A stretch of 24,541 nt of DNA. It comes from a virus. Location of the stretch: IMG/VR virus record IMGVR_UViG_3300025828_000185, positions 1 through 24,541 of that record. One strand, written 5' to 3'. How positions within the stretch are numbered: position 1 is the stretch's first letter; each line of letters starts with the position of its first letter. The position numbers were made by a program, and so were the translations under genes. Positions 468-9,639 of this stretch are shown piece by piece. The notes beneath the pieces were generated by a model. It did no database searches, was not told the DNA's origin, and was given only the letters and a program-made list of their open reading frames with translations.

Positions 468-494
468 GAGGGGGCTTTCGCCCCCTCTTTTTTT
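468..494 (+). terminator. Rho-independent terminator of gp32
   Basis: GAGGGGGC (468-475) pairs perfectly with GCCCCCTC (480-487) across a TTTC loop and is followed at once by seven T residues (488-494). It is by far the most GC-rich hairpin I noticed in the window. The T tract overlaps the stop codon of the convergent gene (493-495). Read leftward, the same hairpin is preceded by an A tract and followed by a weaker AGTTTCTT stretch. It may therefore also stop the late minus-strand transcript, but rightward termination is the better-supported use. Confidence 0.9.
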
Positions 495-2736
495 AACCGT
501 ATTGTAGTTTAGCAAGTCTTGCTCGTTTTCTATCAATCCTTGCTACTTTCCTTTGATAAGGTGACATTGAAGCAACAGTAGTACTCTGCACACTGTTCTG
601 TGTGTTGTTTGTAATTGCTGTGGTTGTAGTATTATCTGTAACTGATGGAGCGGCTGCCGCAGTTGCTACTTCAGAACTTCTTACATCAATCTCTGCACCA
701 GTCGTAGCAGTCATTGCATTTGGATTGATAGCCATTTGCAGTTCTTTAATTCTTTTTGTCGCTTGCTCAAATTTAATGTCTGGTGATGCAAGTCCTTTGA
801 TGGTTGTACCAGAACTGAAGAAACCTTCACCTACTACTCCACCCATAATAGCGGTTTCAATCGCTGGAATTGCTCTCATCAAATCATTAGCAAAATCTGT
901 CATATTGATGTTTGAACCATCAAACTTCAAACCAGAAATTTTATTTAATGCGTCACCAACTTTATCAATAGCATCAGCACCAGCAAAAATATCAGCGGCT
1001 CTATCAGCAACATTTAACATTTCTTGAATTGGTGATTCGCTACCAGATAAGAAGTTTAGGAATGCTGTTCCAGCATCAGCAAGCCCTGCTACAAATTTAC
1101 CACCAGCAAATTTCATAAGACCACTTGAGATGGTGCCCATCACTCTGCTGAATATATTTGCTTTTTCTTCTGCTACTGCACCCTCTTCTGTCAGTGTCAA
1201 TAATGTTTTAACTTGTCTGACAATCCTATCAGCCATGTCTTCTTCACTAGCAAACTTATTGACTGCTTCTGCAACTCCAGCGGCGCCAGAACCAAATGCG
1301 AATGCCGCAAGACCAGCACCAATACCAGACATGGTGAGGAAGAATGCTCCACCAGACTTCAACATTTCCCAATTTCCACCTAGTGAATCTTTAATACTTA
1401 AAAGAGTGATAACATTCTGTTTAATCTGTTCAGCCCAGTTACCACCAGTAAATTTATCAACCGCTTCTCCAGCACCAGCGGCGGCCGCTCCAGCAACACC
1501 ACCGACTGCAAATGCAACAAGACCTAGGCCTATTCCTGCCATCGCCGCCGCAAATACAGCAGAATCAATAAACATTGACAGATTACCACCAGCCTCATCT
1601 TTGATGGATAGCAAGGTGAGAACATTTTGTTTGATTGTTTCAGCCCAGTTACCGCCACTAAAGGTATCTAACGCTTCTCCCATACCGCCACCAACAGCAG
1701 ATGCACCTTCACCAATAGCAAAGAAGAAAAGACCTAATCCCAATCCAGCCATAGCGGCGGCAAAGAATGCCGCATCTGTTAGGAAGGATAGATTACCGCC
1801 AGCCGCATCACCAATAGATAATAGAGTTAAAACATTTTGTTTTATACTTTCTGCCCAATTACCGCCAGTGAAATAATCTAAAGTTTCTGACATACCACCA
1901 CCAACAGCAGATGCACCTTCTCCTATAGCAAAGAAGAATAAACCTAAACCTAGACCTGCCATTGCGGCCGCAAAGAAAGCGGCGTCTGTTAAGAAACTTA
2001 AATTGCCACCAGCGGCGTCACCAATACTAAGAAGTGTCAAGACATTCTGTTTTATACTTTCTGCCCAGTTTCCTCCAGTAAAGTAATCTAAAGTTTCAGT
2101 CATGCCTCCAGCGAGACCTGATAGACCTTGTCCTAAAGCAAAAGCGGCAAGACCTAAACCGATACCAGCCATCGCTAAGAAGAATGTTCCAGACTCTTTG
2201 AAGAACTCACCAGCACTACCAAATTCATCTTTGATGGATAAGAGTGTCATAACACTTTGCTTAACTTTATCTGCATCAAAGTCGCTTAGTGCAGTAAGAA
2301 GATAACCAGCACCGCCTGCAAGAATACCAGCGCCAGCAAGTAATGCACCACCCCCAACACCTAGTCCAGAGAATAGTCCGCCAATTGCACCTGTAATACC
2401 TTTACCTATTTTACCAAGAAAGGAGTTACTTTTTCCAGCATCAAGATTGACATCACCATTGATAGTAGTGTCGCCATCACCACCGCCACCAAGGCCACCA
2501 CCTCTAGATGCTTCTCTAGCGGCTTCCAAATCCAAGCCAGCCTGCATTGCCTGTGCATCCCACCCTGCTTTTTGCATTTCATACAAATCACGCAAGGTAT
2601 TGTGCATACCATCAACAGATTTAACGACATTCAAAAGACCTGCTCTAAGACTTTTCTGCAATCTTTGTCGATTGTCAGTCTCGTTTGCTATCTGGTCTTT
2701 TCCTATCTGTTCATTGATATCAGGCAATTCAGCCAT
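493..2736 (-). CDS. Large repeat-containing hydrophobic protein, candidate tail tape measure
   Basis: 747 residues. Residues 1-75 look helical and charged; 76-90 are Gly-rich; about 105-150 are hydrophobic and Gly/Ala-rich. Roughly residues 145-490 form about five tandem units of about 70 residues, each with WAExIKQNVLTLLSI, then GGN, a strongly hydrophobic 20-25-residue stretch (FFAAAMAGLGLGLFFFAIGE in two units), then ETLDYFTGGN. A sixth decayed unit follows. The C-terminus is Thr/Asn-rich, then basic (YQRKVARIDRKRARLAKLQYG). Length, helical repeats, membrane-like segments and position downstream of gp26/gp51 resemble a tail tape measure, the ruler that sets tail length and is ejected with the DNA. 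At 0.15 nm per residue a fully helical protein would be about 112 nm. I see no specific similarity to T4 gp29, so a different internal virion protein is possible. The start is supported by AAGGA six bases upstream of ATG. Confidence 0.55.
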   Translation of the reverse strand: MAELPDINEQIGKDQIANETDNRQRLQKSLRAGLLNVVKSVDGMHNTLRDLYEMQKAGWDAQAMQAGLDLEAAREASRGGGLGGGGDGDTTINGDVNLDAGKSNSFLGKIGKGITGAIGGLFSGLGVGGGALLAGAGILAGGAGYLLTALSDFDADKVKQSVMTLLSIKDEFGSAGEFFKESGTFFLAMAGIGLGLAAFALGQGLSGLAGGMTETLDYFTGGNWAESIKQNVLTLLSIGDAAGGNLSFLTDAAFFAAAMAGLGLGLFFFAIGEGASAVGGGMSETLDYFTGGNWAESIKQNVLTLLSIGDAAGGNLSFLTDAAFFAAAMAGLGLGLFFFAIGEGASAVGGGMGEALDTFSGGNWAETIKQNVLTLLSIKDEAGGNLSMFIDSAVFAAAMAGIGLGLVAFAVGGVAGAAAAGAGEAVDKFTGGNWAEQIKQNVITLLSIKDSLGGNWEMLKSGGAFFLTMSGIGAGLAAFAFGSGAAGVAEAVNKFASEEDMADRIVRQVKTLLTLTEEGAVAEEKANIFSRVMGTISSGLMKFAGGKFVAGLADAGTAFLNFLSGSESPIQEMLNVADRAADIFAGADAIDKVGDALNKISGLKFDGSNINMTDFANDLMRAIPAIETAIMGGVVGEGFFSSGTTIKGLASPDIKFEQATKRIKELQMAINPNAMTATTGAEIDVRSSEVATAAAAPSVTDNTTTTAITNNTQNSVQSTTVASMSPYQRKVARIDRKRARLAKLQYG
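1262..2310 (-). repeat. Five tandem ~210-bp (70-codon) repeats inside the candidate tape measure
   Basis: Units fall at about 2101-2310, 1891-2100, 1681-1890, 1471-1680 and 1262-1470, in reading order. The two central units (1891-2100 and 1681-1890) encode peptides identical at 69 of 70 positions by hand alignment, yet their DNA differs at about 40 of 210 bases, nearly all at synonymous sites. The outer units are progressively more divergent. Phase is kept at exactly 210 bp in the three best units. Confidence 0.9.
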
Positions 2737-2745
2737 GGATTATCC

Positions 2746-3078
2746 TTACTTTTTCTTTAATGCGTCTGCGCCAAAGAAGGCTGAGACCAATACTGCAATT
2801 GATGCAAAATATGTTGGGGCGATATCAGCAATTAGATTGGCCGCTGTATCTAGTCCAAGCAATGAAGTTACTGCAATACCAATTGGATATACTAACAATC
2901 CAAAGAGCGAGAACCATGCCATCTTACGAATAGCATCTCTCTGTGCATCAGCATCTTCTAGTGCTTTCCTCTTAAATTCCAAATGCATCTCCATTTCTTC
3001 TGCTGAGATGTGACCATCACCATTTGCGTCCATGCCTTCTACAGCGGCCGCATCAATGGTTTTCTTATCTTCTGCCAT
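2746..3078 (-). CDS. EF-hand protein with two transmembrane helices
   Basis: 110 residues. Residues 17-28 (DANGDGHISAEE) fit a canonical EF-hand calcium loop: D1, N3, D5, G6, I8 and E12 are all present. A charged helix follows (about 29-51), then two hydrophobic segments at about 53-74 and 84-104, and a Lys-rich C-terminus. This predicts a small membrane protein with a cytoplasmic or periplasmic calcium-binding head. I recall similar proteins next to gp51/gp26 in marine T4-like phages, where they are unassigned. Its size and two helices would allow a holin-like or membrane-anchor role, but its place between hub-assembly genes and the candidate tape measure argues equally for a tail or DNA-entry role. 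The start has GAGGT eight bases upstream. It ends 9 bases before the next gene, so they are surely co-transcribed. Confidence 0.7.
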   Translation of the reverse strand: MAEDKKTIDAAAVEGMDANGDGHISAEEMEMHLEFKRKALEDADAQRDAIRKMAWFSLFGLLVYPIGIAVTSLLGLDTAANLIADIAPTYFASIAVLVSAFFGADALKKK

Positions 3079-3083
3079 GTGAC

Positions 3084-3266
3084 TTACCTCTTTCGTTGTC
3101 TTGCTTTGTGTTTTTCTTCTTCTTCCTCAAGATGTTGTTTTAGCAAAGTCACATAGATATTCCTCTCAAAAGGAATCATGTTATCTAGTTCAGTTAATGA
3201 ATATTTATGATGTTGCATAAGTGCAAAGTTCATATGATACATATTCGTCAGAGAATCGTGTATCAT
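3084..3266 (-). CDS. gp51: gp51-like baseplate hub assembly protein (short marine form)
   Basis: 60 residues containing MYHMNFALMQHHKYSLTELD, then NMIPFERNIYVTLLKQHLEE and a run of charged residues. The HHKYS...MIPFER...Y...L..H pattern is what I know from short proteins annotated as gp51 in marine T4-like phages; T4 gp51 itself is about 249 residues. In T4, gp51 acts catalytically in assembling the baseplate hub and is not found in the finished particle. The ATG overlaps the gp26 stop (ATGA, 3263-3266). No Shine-Dalgarno lies at normal distance: the nearest purine box, GGAGGG, is 24 nt away. The start codon also sits inside a predicted 8-bp stem. Expression is therefore likely by coupling to gp26 or by the candidate -1 frameshift. 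Confidence 0.65.
   Translation of the reverse strand: MIHDSLTNMYHMNFALMQHHKYSLTELDNMIPFERNIYVTLLKQHLEEEEEKHKARQRKR
3202..3209 (-). promoter_or_regulatory. Candidate T4-type late promoter CATAAATA
   Basis: Read on the minus strand the octamer is CATAAATA, fitting the NATAAATA late motif described for T4-like phages. It lies inside gp51, about 125 bases before the EF-hand gene, and could give that gene and the candidate tape measure extra transcript. Such 7-mers are expected several times by chance in AT-rich DNA, so this is weak. Confidence 0.3.
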
Positions 3267-3296
3267 CGCAAGGTAAAAAAACTTTGCAGGCCCTCC
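3234..3296 (-). promoter_or_regulatory. Candidate programmed -1 frameshift cassette, gp26 to gp51
   Basis: In mRNA order: GGAGGG (3296-3291), 9 nt, the heptamer T TTT TTT (3281-3275) read as AGT TTT TTT in the gp26 frame, 8 nt, then an 8-bp perfect stem ATGATACA (3266-3259) with TGTATCAT (3241-3234) and a 17-nt loop. Slipping back one base gives TAC CTT GCG ATG and continues in the gp51 frame with no stop. The result is a predicted 297-residue gp26-gp51 fusion (234 + 3 + 60). The same three elements stimulate -1 shifts in dnaX, and lambda-type tail genes use a -1 shift to make a G/GT chaperone pair. No frameshift is known to me for T4 gp26. Confidence 0.6.
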
Positions 3297-3976
3297 ACCA
3301 CCATTTCTTCATCTTCACCGCATTTAGGACATTTCCAAGTTATCGTATGTTTCAACTTGGGCATATCTTCAAAGAATGCACTAACATTTTTGAATTGTCC
3401 TTGATTTAGATTGTTTACCCAATCAGAGAGTTCTTCTCTTGTGAAGTCACTCTCACCATAAATCTTCTCTTTATCATAAATGTATTCGATGCAATCTAGA
3501 ATCATATTAAATAAAGATTCAGCATCCTCACCTTTCATTTTCATTACTGTTCCTAATGTTGGATATCTCATCTTAACACCAACATCTTCAGTAATCATTA
3601 CTTTACCATCTTTGATATCGCCTTGCACTTTGATATCATCAATGTTTATCTGTATTTCTGTTTTGTGTTTACACTCACTATCTTCAGAAGTGTGTCCAAC
3701 ACTTGCATTGATAACCTCACCAACAGACTTACCTCTTACTTTTAGAAAAAGGTATTCAATGTCAAATGTTGACAACTTATCAATATTAATATCACCCATA
3801 ATACAACTTTTAAGAAGTCTCATAATTGCATGGGAAATCTCTTTATTATCTTGTCCTTCTAATGCAATCAAAAGAGTCTTTTCTTCACCAACCAAAAACG
3901 GACGGTATTTAATCTCTTGTTGTGTTGAAGGAATCTTATCAAAAAACTCTGGTGTAGAGATTTTAGGTAAAGCCAT
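3263..3976 (-). CDS. gp26: Baseplate hub subunit / tail assembly protein gp26
   Basis: 237 residues; T4 gp26 is about 208. The order EIKYRPFLVGEEKTLLIALE, then FDIEYLFLKVRGKSVGEVI, then MRYPTLGTVMKM is the pattern of the T4-type baseplate protein family (gp26, PF12322-like). Four potential metal ligands (C102, H104, C216, C219, the last two in CPKCGE) suggest a small zinc-binding element that ties the middle to the C-terminus. In T4, gp26 is needed to build the central hub. The start is well supported by AGGAG seven bases upstream of ATG. The gene ends in the ATGA overlap with gp51, and its last codons contain an in-phase T TTT TTT heptamer. A tail-assembly-chaperone role is inferred from the gene order chaperone-like pair then candidate tape measure. 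Confidence 0.82.
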   Translation of the reverse strand: MALPKISTPEFFDKIPSTQQEIKYRPFLVGEEKTLLIALEGQDNKEISHAIMRLLKSCIMGDINIDKLSTFDIEYLFLKVRGKSVGEVINASVGHTSEDSECKHKTEIQINIDDIKVQGDIKDGKVMITEDVGVKMRYPTLGTVMKMKGEDAESLFNMILDCIEYIYDKEKIYGESDFTREELSDWVNNLNQGQFKNVSAFFEDMPKLKHTITWKCPKCGEDEEMVVEGLQSFFTLR

Positions 3977-3996: not shown

Positions 3997-4692
3997 TTAG
4001 AATCGAATCGCACCAAACGGCGTATTCACATTTCCGACCGCTCCTAGTCCAGTTTGTCCAGAAATATTGCCAATGCCTGGGATTCTTGCAGATGCCGCTA
4101 GTCCACCAGGCCCAAATGAGAATGAGAAAGACGCTCCAAGACCAGGCTGGTCTGAACGATAAAATACAACCTTGTAATCTTTATATGCCATTGTTACTGC
4201 AAGTTCTGCTGGATTTTCATCACTCCAGTTCATTCCCACTTCACCAATAACAAGTGGATATGCTTCTGTGAGTGTATGAATGCTGTTCAGTTGACCTGCT
4301 TCACCATACTGTCTAATATTGACAACACCAGTGATGACATCATAATATTCAATGTTGTGCTTTGCTCTTCCTAGTCCAAATGTATTTGAACCAACAATGC
4401 GTTCATGCCATTTCTCAAAGTATTCCTTTTCTCTCATATCCTCACTGAGAATAACAGTAAAACTCGCATCAGTATATGTAGCACCATATGGAATCTTTTG
4501 AATAGGTCCATATATTTTATACTCTGCTGTTGATATGGTACGCCCAGGCAATGATGCTTGAGACACTCTAGCCATCATATCTCTTTCCATATCAGATTCA
4601 CCGACACCAGTAATCTGAACTTCAAAATGTGAGTTCTTTGCAATACCACTCTTGTTGAGAGATGCAATAAGGTTCTGAGGATTGAAAGTCAT
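3997..4692 (-). CDS. Tail-tube-fold protein, probable gp54-like tube initiator
   Basis: 231 residues. The N-terminal part has SHFEVQITG, then ARVSQASLPGRTISTAEYKI, then GATYTDASFTVILSEDM and YFEKWHERIVG. These are the strands and helix of the T4 gp19/gp54 tube-protein fold. The stretch PLVIGEVGMNWSDENPAELA with VTMAYKDYKV closes the fold. The last 40 residues are Gly/Ala/Ser-rich and look flexible. Proteins of this fold stack into the inner tube (gp19) or form its first rings on the baseplate (gp54, gp48). Because gp26, gp51 and gp48 are neighbours and the major tube gene is normally beside the sheath gene, gp54 is the better assignment. A second gp19 paralogue is the alternative. The start overlaps the upstream gene by ATGA. 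Confidence 0.6.
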   Translation of the reverse strand: MTFNPQNLIASLNKSGIAKNSHFEVQITGVGESDMERDMMARVSQASLPGRTISTAEYKIYGPIQKIPYGATYTDASFTVILSEDMREKEYFEKWHERIVGSNTFGLGRAKHNIEYYDVITGVVNIRQYGEAGQLNSIHTLTEAYPLVIGEVGMNWSDENPAELAVTMAYKDYKVVFYRSDQPGLGASFSFSFGPGGLAASARIPGIGNISGQTGLGAVGNVNTPFGAIRF

Positions 4693-7429: not shown

Positions 7430-8767
7430 ATGGCCGTTGAAGGTTACAGACAAGCCGGCGATGTAGAACTTAATACCATTGCTTTAGTTGCTCGTTCAGG
7501 TCAGATATTTGACTTGAGTGAAGTGATGCTTGAAATAAACATATTTCAGAATCTATATGAAAAAGAAATGACTTGTGAAGTTGTTGTTTCCGATGCAACA
7601 GGTCTTATTGATTTTATGAAACCAAACAGTGAAGATATTGGTGGTTTCACTGGTATGGAAGCAGTATTCCTATCTTATAGAACACCAGATGAGGGTACAC
7701 CAAAGAACAAGCATTTGTTTATTATGAATAGTCTAGAAAATAGACAGAGTGTTGATGAGAAGATTGAGACATATGTGTTGACAGGAACATCACTGGAAAC
7801 TATTTCGATTGCTGATAAAAAGATTTCTCGTAGTTATGGTGGTAGTAAAGGCAACACGATTGCTAACATGATTAAGAGTGTTCATAAAGAGTTTTATGAG
7901 ACACAGGATATTAAGAAAACATACACCAACTTAGATGAAGCAAACTTTAGAATAAATAAAAAACTTACAGCAGATGATACAAAAGGTTTGCAAAAATATG
8001 TGATACCAAATCTATCAGTAGAGGATACAATCGACTTCTTTGTTAATGAAGCACAGGGTGACGATATTGCATCATTGTATACATTCTATGAAGATAGTAA
8101 TGGATATCACTTTAGAAATGTTTCTAATCTTGTACAAAGTGAAATAAAGGAAACATACAAGTGGGAGCCTTCTAACTATACGGAAGGTGGAGAAGGTGCT
8201 GGTGCAGAAAACTTAGATGCTTTCAAAATTATATCATATGAAGTTATAAAAGAAGCAGACTTTCTTGATAACAAGGAAAGTGGACTATACGCTTCAAAAA
8301 CTATATTGATTGACAATCTCAGAAAGAAAAAGATTGAAAGAGATTTTGATTATAAGAAGCAACATGATAAGTTTAAGAAACTACAGAGGTTTCGTATTCC
8401 AGGCTCCGCTTCAAGCACAGCAATTGTTGATATGTTTACCACTCGTTTTCAACATGACCAGTTGGATATTTTCAGAGATGAGAATGTCAGACCCAAGACA
8501 CTTGAAAGAACAGTTCAGTTCAGAAGAAGTTATGCATCGCATTTGAATAACAAAACACTAGAAGTGACAATTCATGGTAACTCCAAACTCAATGTTGGAG
8601 ATACTGTATTCCTCAGTTTTCCAGTAATGAGTACTGGAGAGGAACAAATGCGAGAAGATAAATATATGACAGGTAAACACCTTATCACTGCTTTGCGTCA
8701 CAAGATAGATAAGGAAACTCATGTAACAGTAATGGAATGTATCAAAGACACAGGATTTAAGAGATGA
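7430..8767 (+). CDS. gp27: Baseplate hub protein, gp27-like
   Basis: 445 residues; T4 gp27 is 391. It opens with DLSEVMLEINIFQNLYEKEM and CEVVVSDATGLIDFM, then GGFTGMEAVFLSYRTPD. Later come FFVNEA, YTFYEDSNGYHFRNVSNL and a C-terminal LEVTIHGNSKLNVGDTVFLS followed by GKHLITALRHKIDKE. This matches the hub fold shared by gp27, P2 gpD and VgrG: two tube-like beta domains plus a domain ending in the G.s.l.vGD.v motif. The hub trimer adapts the six-fold tube to the three-fold spike gp5, encoded two genes downstream. The start has AGGAAG eight bases upstream. The stop overlaps the next start by ATGA. Confidence 0.72.
   Translation: MAVEGYRQAGDVELNTIALVARSGQIFDLSEVMLEINIFQNLYEKEMTCEVVVSDATGLIDFMKPNSEDIGGFTGMEAVFLSYRTPDEGTPKNKHLFIMNSLENRQSVDEKIETYVLTGTSLETISIADKKISRSYGGSKGNTIANMIKSVHKEFYETQDIKKTYTNLDEANFRINKKLTADDTKGLQKYVIPNLSVEDTIDFFVNEAQGDDIASLYTFYEDSNGYHFRNVSNLVQSEIKETYKWEPSNYTEGGEGAGAENLDAFKIISYEVIKEADFLDNKESGLYASKTILIDNLRKKKIERDFDYKKQHDKFKKLQRFRIPGSASSTAIVDMFTTRFQHDQLDIFRDENVRPKTLERTVQFRRSYASHLNNKTLEVTIHGNSKLNVGDTVFLSFPVMSTGEEQMREDKYMTGKHLITALRHKIDKETHVTVMECIKDTGFKR
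8657..8664 (+). promoter_or_regulatory. Candidate late promoter before the kinase-like gene
   Basis: GATAAATA lies 99 bases before the kinase-like ATG, inside the hub gene. It fits NATAAATA and would allow separate late expression of the kinase and gp5. It is weak alone because the motif is short. Confidence 0.25.
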
Positions 8768-9639
8768 TACTAGGACTAAAAGAATATTTTGTAGATAAGT
8801 TGTATAAGCAACTTGACGAAAAATTGATTATGTATAATCAAGGCAAACGGTATGGACAGGTTGTCTTCCTCGCCGGTGGTGCTGGTTCTGGTAAAGGTTT
8901 TGCTATTCAGAACTTTATGGAAGGTGATAAGTTCAAGATTCGTGATGTGGATGAGTGGAAAAAAGCATTCATTAAGATTGACGAACTGAAAAAGAAATAT
9001 CCAGAGGTTCGTGGACTAAATTTGCGTGAACCAAAAGATGTTTTCAAGTTGCATATGTTTGTGAAGAAAGCAGGCATTAAAGAGAATACACTAAAAGTGA
9101 TGCTGGACGACTTAGTACGCTCAGGCGCCGCATCCAAGGGAACTCTACCAAATATAATCTTTGACATTACACTGAAAGAAATTGGTGATATCACAGAAGT
9201 TCTTCCTCAGTTGAAAAAGATTGGTTATGATTCTAAGAACATTCATGTAACTTGGGTATTGACAAACTACCACACGGCTGTTAAAAATAATGCAGGGCGT
9301 GAAAGAGTTGTGCCTAGTGATATTCTTTTGCAGACGCATGAAGGTGCGGCTAAAACGATGTCACAAATTATTAAGGGTAAACTACCAAGAGGTATCAACG
9401 GTGCAGTAAATGTCATTTTGAATAACAGAGAAAACACTATTCCTTGGACAGACAAGGACGGCAAACCAATCAAGACTAGTGCTGGTGGAATTGTCGTCAA
9501 GGATTTTACATATGTAAATCTGAAGAAGGAAGGTAAAAAGTTTAGAAGAGAAAGTGATGTTCAGCAACAGATTTATGATTGGATTAAAGACAATGTTCCT
9601 GATACAGCACTTAAAGCAATTGACGAACCAGAGCAATAA
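8764..9639 (+). CDS. P-loop kinase-like (zeta-toxin-like) protein inside the baseplate operon
   Basis: 291 residues. FLAGGAGSGKGFAI places a Walker A-type loop at residues 38-45 (GGAGSGKG). The usual Ser/Thr after the Lys is Gly, so nucleotide binding is likely but catalysis is less certain. Further motifs are KIRDVDEWKK, NIIFDITLKEIGDITEVLPQ (hydrophobic strand ending in Asp, Walker B-like), VTWVLTNYHTAVKNN and GRERVVPSDILLQTH. The C-terminal part is charged. The fold looks like the zeta-toxin or small-molecule kinase group of P-loop proteins. I recall similar proteins in other marine T4-like phages, all unassigned. The gene overlaps the hub gene by ATGA and precedes gp5, so it is expressed with structural genes. 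A virion or assembly role is possible, as is a late metabolic role. Confidence 0.65.
   Translation: MILGLKEYFVDKLYKQLDEKLIMYNQGKRYGQVVFLAGGAGSGKGFAIQNFMEGDKFKIRDVDEWKKAFIKIDELKKKYPEVRGLNLREPKDVFKLHMFVKKAGIKENTLKVMLDDLVRSGAASKGTLPNIIFDITLKEIGDITEVLPQLKKIGYDSKNIHVTWVLTNYHTAVKNNAGRERVVPSDILLQTHEGAAKTMSQIIKGKLPRGINGAVNVILNNRENTIPWTDKDGKPIKTSAGGIVVKDFTYVNLKKEGKKFRRESDVQQQIYDWIKDNVPDTALKAIDEPEQ

What the first reader, a model, noticed from the sequence alone, without database searches (positions are those of the whole stretch)
3234..3296. Complete-looking programmed -1 frameshift cassette fusing gp26 to gp51
Read on the minus strand, the last codons of gp26 are CAA AGT TTT TTT ACC TTG CGA TGA. T TTT TTT is an in-phase slippery heptamer. 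A -1 slip continues as TAC CTT GCG ATG in the gp51 frame with no stop, giving a 297-residue fusion. GGAGGG ends 9 nt before the heptamer, 24 nt from the gp51 ATG and so too far to be its ribosome site. An 8-bp perfect stem starts 8 nt after the heptamer. These are the three elements of the dnaX signal, in similar spacing. Many long-tailed phages make a G/GT-type tail chaperone pair by frameshift just before the tape measure, and the candidate tape measure lies two genes downstream. An ATGA overlap always gives a -1 relation, so the frame alone is not evidence; the combination is. I know of no such shift for T4 gp26/gp51.
Basis: partly seen in the sequence, partly recalled or inferred. Interest (0 to 1): 0.87.

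Follow-up and report, generated by a model that had tools for sequence, protein, structure and literature searches.

The report
Tail-chaperone frameshift signal in T4-like phage
A marine T4-like virus carries a three-part signal that makes some ribosomes slip back one letter and join two tail-assembly proteins (gp26 and gp51) into one longer protein; nearly all related marine viruses checked here keep the signal, so it is very likely real, but it belongs to a class of phage frameshift that is already known.

Summary
Read on the minus strand, gp26 (3976-3263) ends ...GGAGGG-9 nt-T TTT TTT-8 nt-8 bp stem, and gp51 follows in the -1 frame; a slip gives 234+63 = 297 residues. Comparative tests strongly favour a working signal. 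In-phase T TTT TTN occurs in 57 of 57 non-redundant relatives chosen by gp26 similarity alone (24.4 expected from synonymous codon use, P about 10^-21 if independent), and in distant isolates (Melnitz, phiM12, Ah1, LPCS28, Vibrio phages). The Glu codon of the purine box is GAG in 42/54 (27% background), and the downstream RNA folds better than synonymous shuffles (mean z -2.0 to -2.2; -0.4 further down). The ATGA overlap is unique to the window (1/57), and many relatives have no gp51 start codon. gp51 is therefore mainly the C-terminal part of a gp26-gp51 fusion. gp26's N-terminal domain resembles the HK97 tail assembly chaperone, so this looks like a lambda G/GT-type pair. In T4, gp51 is itself a gp26-like protein plus this extension, so duplication appears to replace the frameshift. 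Vladimirov et al. 2022 already identified the T4-like chaperone genes. New member of a known kind.

The parts
3263..3976 (-). gp26: short tail assembly chaperone (237 aa; G-like), PF12322 / phrog_150
   Evidence: PF12322 3.8e-66, phrog_150 5.3e-70; predicted fold pLDDT 93.4, N-terminal domain like HK97 gp13
3275..3281 (-). slippery heptamer T TTT TTT, in phase with gp26
   Evidence: sequence; T TTT TTN in 57/57 relatives
3291..3296 (-). purine-rich Shine-Dalgarno-like box GGAGGG, 9 nt before the heptamer
   Evidence: sequence; GAG (not GAA) favoured at this Glu, 42/54 vs 27% background, P 8e-15
3234..3266 (-). downstream hairpin; 8-bp arms 3266-3259 and 3241-3234, starting 8 nt after the heptamer
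   Evidence: covariation in a relative subclade
3084..3275 (-). gp51 region read in the -1 frame after the slip (63-aa extension, T-like)
   Evidence: phrog_634 1.6e-25; conserved from the slip point onwards, including residues before the ATG
3084..3266 (-). mechanical ATG-initiated gp51 ORF (60 aa); the ATG lies inside the hairpin and is probably an internal Met codon
   Evidence: ATGA overlap in 1 of 57 relatives only
493..2736 (-). candidate tape measure protein two genes downstream (747 aa)
   Evidence: position and length; the gene at the same place in phiM12 is annotated as similar to tape measure proteins; no family match in the window protein itself
3997..4692 (-). tail tube (gp19-like) just upstream of gp26
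   Evidence: phrog_45 2.8e-23

Best explanation
A -1 programmed ribosomal frameshift makes two tail assembly chaperones from one start. Most ribosomes stop at the gp26 TGA and make the 237-aa short form. A minority pause at T TTT TTT, helped by the purine box pairing with 16S rRNA upstream and by the hairpin downstream. The P- and A-site tRNA-Phe re-pair one base back and translation continues through gp51, giving a 297-aa gp26-gp51 fusion. By analogy with lambda gpG/gpGT, the two forms coat the tape measure protein and recruit tube subunits, and neither remains in the virion. Shown here: sequence elements, their conservation, open -1 frame, fold resemblance. Inferred: that slippage occurs, its rate, the roles of box and stem, and the chaperone function in this phage.
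For: Heptamer in-phase in 57/57 relatives at <80% identity and 26/26 at <60%, against 24.4 and 11.5 expected from synonymous codon use. It also occurs in Kyanoviridae isolates, Melnitz, phiM12, Ah1, LPCS28, D491s, D479 and phi-Grn1. L028, L083 and L087 have Leu TTA in place of the second Phe codon but keep T TTT TTA, so the nucleotides are conserved rather than the residues. Elsewhere in the same genes only 14 such heptamers occur in 12,255 codons, and another conserved FF site has it in 1/47. gp51 homology starts at the slip point; 24/56 lack any ATG and 8/56 any ATG/GTG/TTG before residue 10. GAG preference in the box, P 8e-15. RNA folding z -2.0 to -2.2 next to the site and -0.4 further down; compensatory pairs in a subclade. 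phrog_150 itself extends into gp51-like sequence, and T4 gp51 is a gp26-like+gp51 protein. The HK97 tail chaperone is among the best structural matches to gp26 residues 1-95.
Against: No direct evidence of slippage: no peptide, reporter or ribosome profile. The window's own gp51 has an ATG overlapping the gp26 stop, so some independent gp51 by re-initiation is possible. The hairpin is not the same in all relatives and is not detectable in some. The HK97 match is partial (N-terminal domain) and Z 7.5 is below the level at which a match is secure. Ackermannviridae and Tevenvirinae gp26 genes lack the heptamer. The P values assume independent sequences.
Confidence: 0.92

Rival explanations
1. gp51 is a separate protein started at its own ATG by termination-reinitiation at the ATGA overlap, and the heptamer is incidental.
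For: The window has a classic ATGA overlap and a plausible 60-aa ORF; GenBank records annotate gp51 as a separate gene.
Against: ATGA occurs in 1/57 relatives and a start overlapping the stop in 5/57, whereas the heptamer is in 57/57. Many relatives have no start codon before conserved gp51 residues. The conserved extension includes residues upstream of the window's ATG. The ATG lies inside the hairpin and its nearest purine box is 24 nt away.
Confidence: 0.05
2. Transcriptional slippage on the T run, not ribosomal frameshifting, makes the fusion.
For: The site is a run of T (7 in the window).
Against: The run is only 6 T in 44 of 57 relatives and never over 8, short for known transcriptional slippage (general knowledge). 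The seventh base is mostly C, and the purine box and downstream structure are features of ribosomal signals.
Confidence: 0.03
3. The FF dipeptide and codon bias alone conserve the T run; there is no frameshift.
For: FF is invariant in gp26, and TTT is the commoner Phe codon (74%).
Against: 24.4 expected vs 57 observed. Another conserved FF site carries it in 1/47. Three loci keep T TTT TTA though the residue is Leu. The preceding residue varies (Ser, Asn, Asp, Ala, Gly) but its codon always ends in T.
Confidence: 0.01

Closest known systems
Lambda gpG/gpGT and the conserved tail-chaperone frameshift of long-tailed phages (Xu et al. 2004; cited in PMC10885494, PMC12859696)
   Same: -1 frameshift near the end of the short chaperone gene, just upstream of the tape measure gene, giving short and long forms
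   Different: lambda slips on G GGA AAG (own knowledge); here T TTT TTY with purine box and hairpin; gp26 is larger than gpG, with an extra C-terminal part
Tail assembly chaperones of T4-like phages (Vladimirov, Gautam and Davidson 2022, Virology 566:9-15; not held, known here only through citing papers)
   Same: Same gene families as far as the citing papers and the T4 gp51 architecture show; poly-T signals in T4-like TAC genes are credited to it by PMC12846349
   Different: The title stresses a mechanism other than frameshifting (short gene plus long fusion gene, per PMC10885494); in this window and its relatives the frameshift arrangement is present
E. coli dnaX -1 frameshift signal
   Same: Shine-Dalgarno-like box about 10 nt upstream, slippery heptamer, downstream hairpin
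   Different: dnaX slips on A AAA AAG and shortens the product (own knowledge); here the slip extends it
Vandenendeviridae/Andersonviridae TAC frameshift, GTTTTT motif (PMC12846349)
   Different: other phage families; motif GTTTTT rather than T TTT TTY; homology of the chaperones not tested here

Membership tests
[quoted passage not shown]
Phage tail assembly chaperone frameshift pairs (G/GT type) | Downstream ORF in -1 frame, homologous from the slip point, dispensable own start | tested here: met
Phage tail assembly chaperone frameshift pairs (G/GT type) | Location between tail tube gene and tape measure gene | tested here: inconclusive
   tail tube upstream by phrog_45; tape measure called by position, length and phiM12 annotation only
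Phage tail assembly chaperone frameshift pairs (G/GT type) | Tail assembly chaperone fold in the short protein | tested here: inconclusive
   HK97 chaperone 2ob9 Foldseek prob 0.85, Z 7.5 over 83 residues, unrelated rows 2.4 or less; N-terminal domain only
Phage tail assembly chaperone frameshift pairs (G/GT type) | Both products made in vivo in a fixed ratio | not testable with these tools
   needs reporter or proteomics
T4 gp26/gp51 family | Sequence homology to T4 gp26 and gp51 | tested here: met
   PF12322 and phrog_150 for gp26, phrog_634 for gp51; T4-type gp51 hits the same families
dnaX-type three-element signal | SD-like box, heptamer and downstream hairpin with suitable spacing | tested here: met
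   contribution of box and stem to slippage not tested

The most novel reading that the evidence does not exclude
The frameshift is the ancestral and predominant way of making the long tail chaperone across T4-like phages (Kyanoviridae and several Straboviridae and rhizobial lineages), with a full dnaX-like three-element signal, and T4 and its close kin replaced it by duplicating gp26 into gp51; this would qualify the published emphasis on a non-frameshift mechanism for T4-like phages.
Probability: 0.35. Interest if true: 0.55.

Novelty: new member of a known kind. Interest (0 to 1): 0.42.

Why it matters
It corrects the annotation of a whole gene family: the 'baseplate hub assembly catalyst' gp51 of marine T4-like phages is mostly the tail end of a frameshift fusion, often misannotated with a late start or not annotated at all. 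It ties T4's long-puzzling hub assembly proteins gp26 and gp51 to tail-length chaperones, and offers a natural case of a frameshift replaced by gene duplication.

Tried and rejected
A search with the wide gp26 alignment failed for lack of conserved stretches; a closer alignment was used. The outer helix, which pairs the slippery site itself with GAACTTTGC, was not pursued: a ribosome on the site would melt it and the downstream half encodes conserved NFA. No sequence match of the gp26 profile in the PDB. Vladimirov et al. 2022 is not held, so its exact coverage of cyanophages could not be read. Re-initiation, transcriptional slippage and plain codon bias were considered and are disfavoured. 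Pseudoknots were not tested.

Full report
What is there. The window is a virus record with T4-like tail genes. On the minus strand lie head closure (gp4), DNA end protector (gp2), tail tube, gp26, gp51, a small membrane-like protein and a 747-aa candidate tape measure. The predicted fusion is 234+63 = 297 aa.

Is it more than chance? I collected 80 loci from viral contigs by gp26 similarity, so that neither gp51 nor the heptamer entered the selection, and reduced them with the window to 57 at under 80% and 26 at under 60% identity. All 57 carry in-phase NNT TTT TTN near the end of gp26, against 24.4 expected if the residues were fixed and codons free (log10 P -21.5; -9.5 for the 26). The P values treat sequences as independent and are thus optimistic. 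Outside the last 20 codons the same genes hold 14 such heptamers in 12,255 codons; another conserved FF site holds it in 1 of 47. In a further set selected by gp51, three loci (L028, L083, L087) replace the second Phe by Leu but keep T TTT TTA.

Breadth. Named phages with the heptamer: Sf-CH8, P-RSM6, S-RSM4, S-CRM01, Melnitz, phiM12, Vibrio D491s, D479 and phi-Grn1, Cronobacter LPCS28, Aeromonas Ah1. Without it: RB55 and Melville (Tevenvirinae), A221, Salmonella phage 38 and Vibrio D533.

Is gp51 read as a fusion? Homology begins at the slip point (R/Y-x-A-L/M-x-H-x-S-L). Of 56 relatives with enough sequence, 24 have no ATG and 8 no ATG/GTG/TTG in the first nine codons. A start overlapping the gp26 stop occurs in 5 of 57, the ATGA form only in the window. 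The PHROG profile for gp26 (phrog_150) runs on into gp51-like sequence and is hit by gp51. T4-type gp51 (RB55) matches PF12322 over residues 1-201 (7.7e-55) and phrog_634 over 147-246: it is a gp26-like protein with the gp51 extension attached, a separate long-form gene.

Stimulators. At the Glu codon of the box, GAG is used 42 of 54 times against 27% elsewhere in these genes (P 8e-15). The 45 nt after the slip fold better than shuffles that keep the gp51 protein (mean z -2.01 and -2.22 for two overlapping stretches, SEM about 0.24) and the effect fades to about -0.4 further along. In one subclade an 11-bp stem shows 91% paired cells and compensatory change concentrated in one pair (U-A, A-U, G-C), above all 500 shuffles for the covariation score, which relatedness can inflate. 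The window's hairpin: z -1.9, p 0.03 against synonymous shuffles. The stem therefore varies by lineage; the heptamer is invariant and the box nearly so.

Function. The gp26 model is confident (pLDDT 93.4). Its residues 1-95 match the HK97 tail assembly chaperone (2ob9, Z 7.5) and 3fgx (Z 7.6), with 5ir0 next at 4.9 and unrelated rows at 2.4 or less; Foldseek gives 2ob9 probability 0.85. This is supportive, not proof. A review lists T4 gp26 and gp51 as hub assembly chaperones and gp51 as required for assembly but absent from the particle (PMC3004832).

What is known. Xu et al. 2004 described the conserved tail chaperone frameshift. Vladimirov et al. [quoted passage not shown] I could not read it. 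PMC10885494 says it reports that some T4-like phages carry a short gene and a long fusion gene instead of frameshifting; PMC12846349 credits it with poly-T -1 signals in T4-like TAC-N genes. So the class, and probably this signal in some relatives, is known. The window is a new member, here with a quantified three-element signal.

Verdict. Observation confirmed; interpretation supported; novelty modest. Slippage itself remains to be shown by experiment.

Noticed in passing
window 2746-3078 (-): 110-aa protein between gp51 and the candidate tape measure with a weak EF-hand-like loop (DANGDGHIS; PF13202 below cut-off) and hydrophobic stretches; a similar EF-hand-like protein (DTNGDGKVSDEE) sits at the same place in Methylophilales phage Melnitz (L008:1704-2033).
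   Followed up: partly
L014, L179 (Ackermannviridae-type gp26 loci): gp51-like sequence follows in the -1 frame but without T TTT TTY; a TAATG stop-start overlap is present instead, perhaps a switch to re-initiation.
   Followed up: no
L006, L008, L013, L015, L178, L180: Public records begin gp51 too late or leave it unannotated, as expected when the real product is a frameshift fusion.
   Followed up: partly
L012:1501-2241 (Salmonella phage 38): gp26 is cut short by an apparent frame change near its end while sister phages match full length in one piece; possibly a sequencing error.
   Followed up: no
window 8764-9639 (+): 291-aa protein with a P-loop (GGAGSGKG) kinase-like start among baseplate genes; no family match in NCBIfam.
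   Followed up: no
window 493-2736 (-): The candidate tape measure holds long near-identical repeats (GNWAESIKQNVLTLLSIGDAAGGNLSFL...).
   Followed up: no
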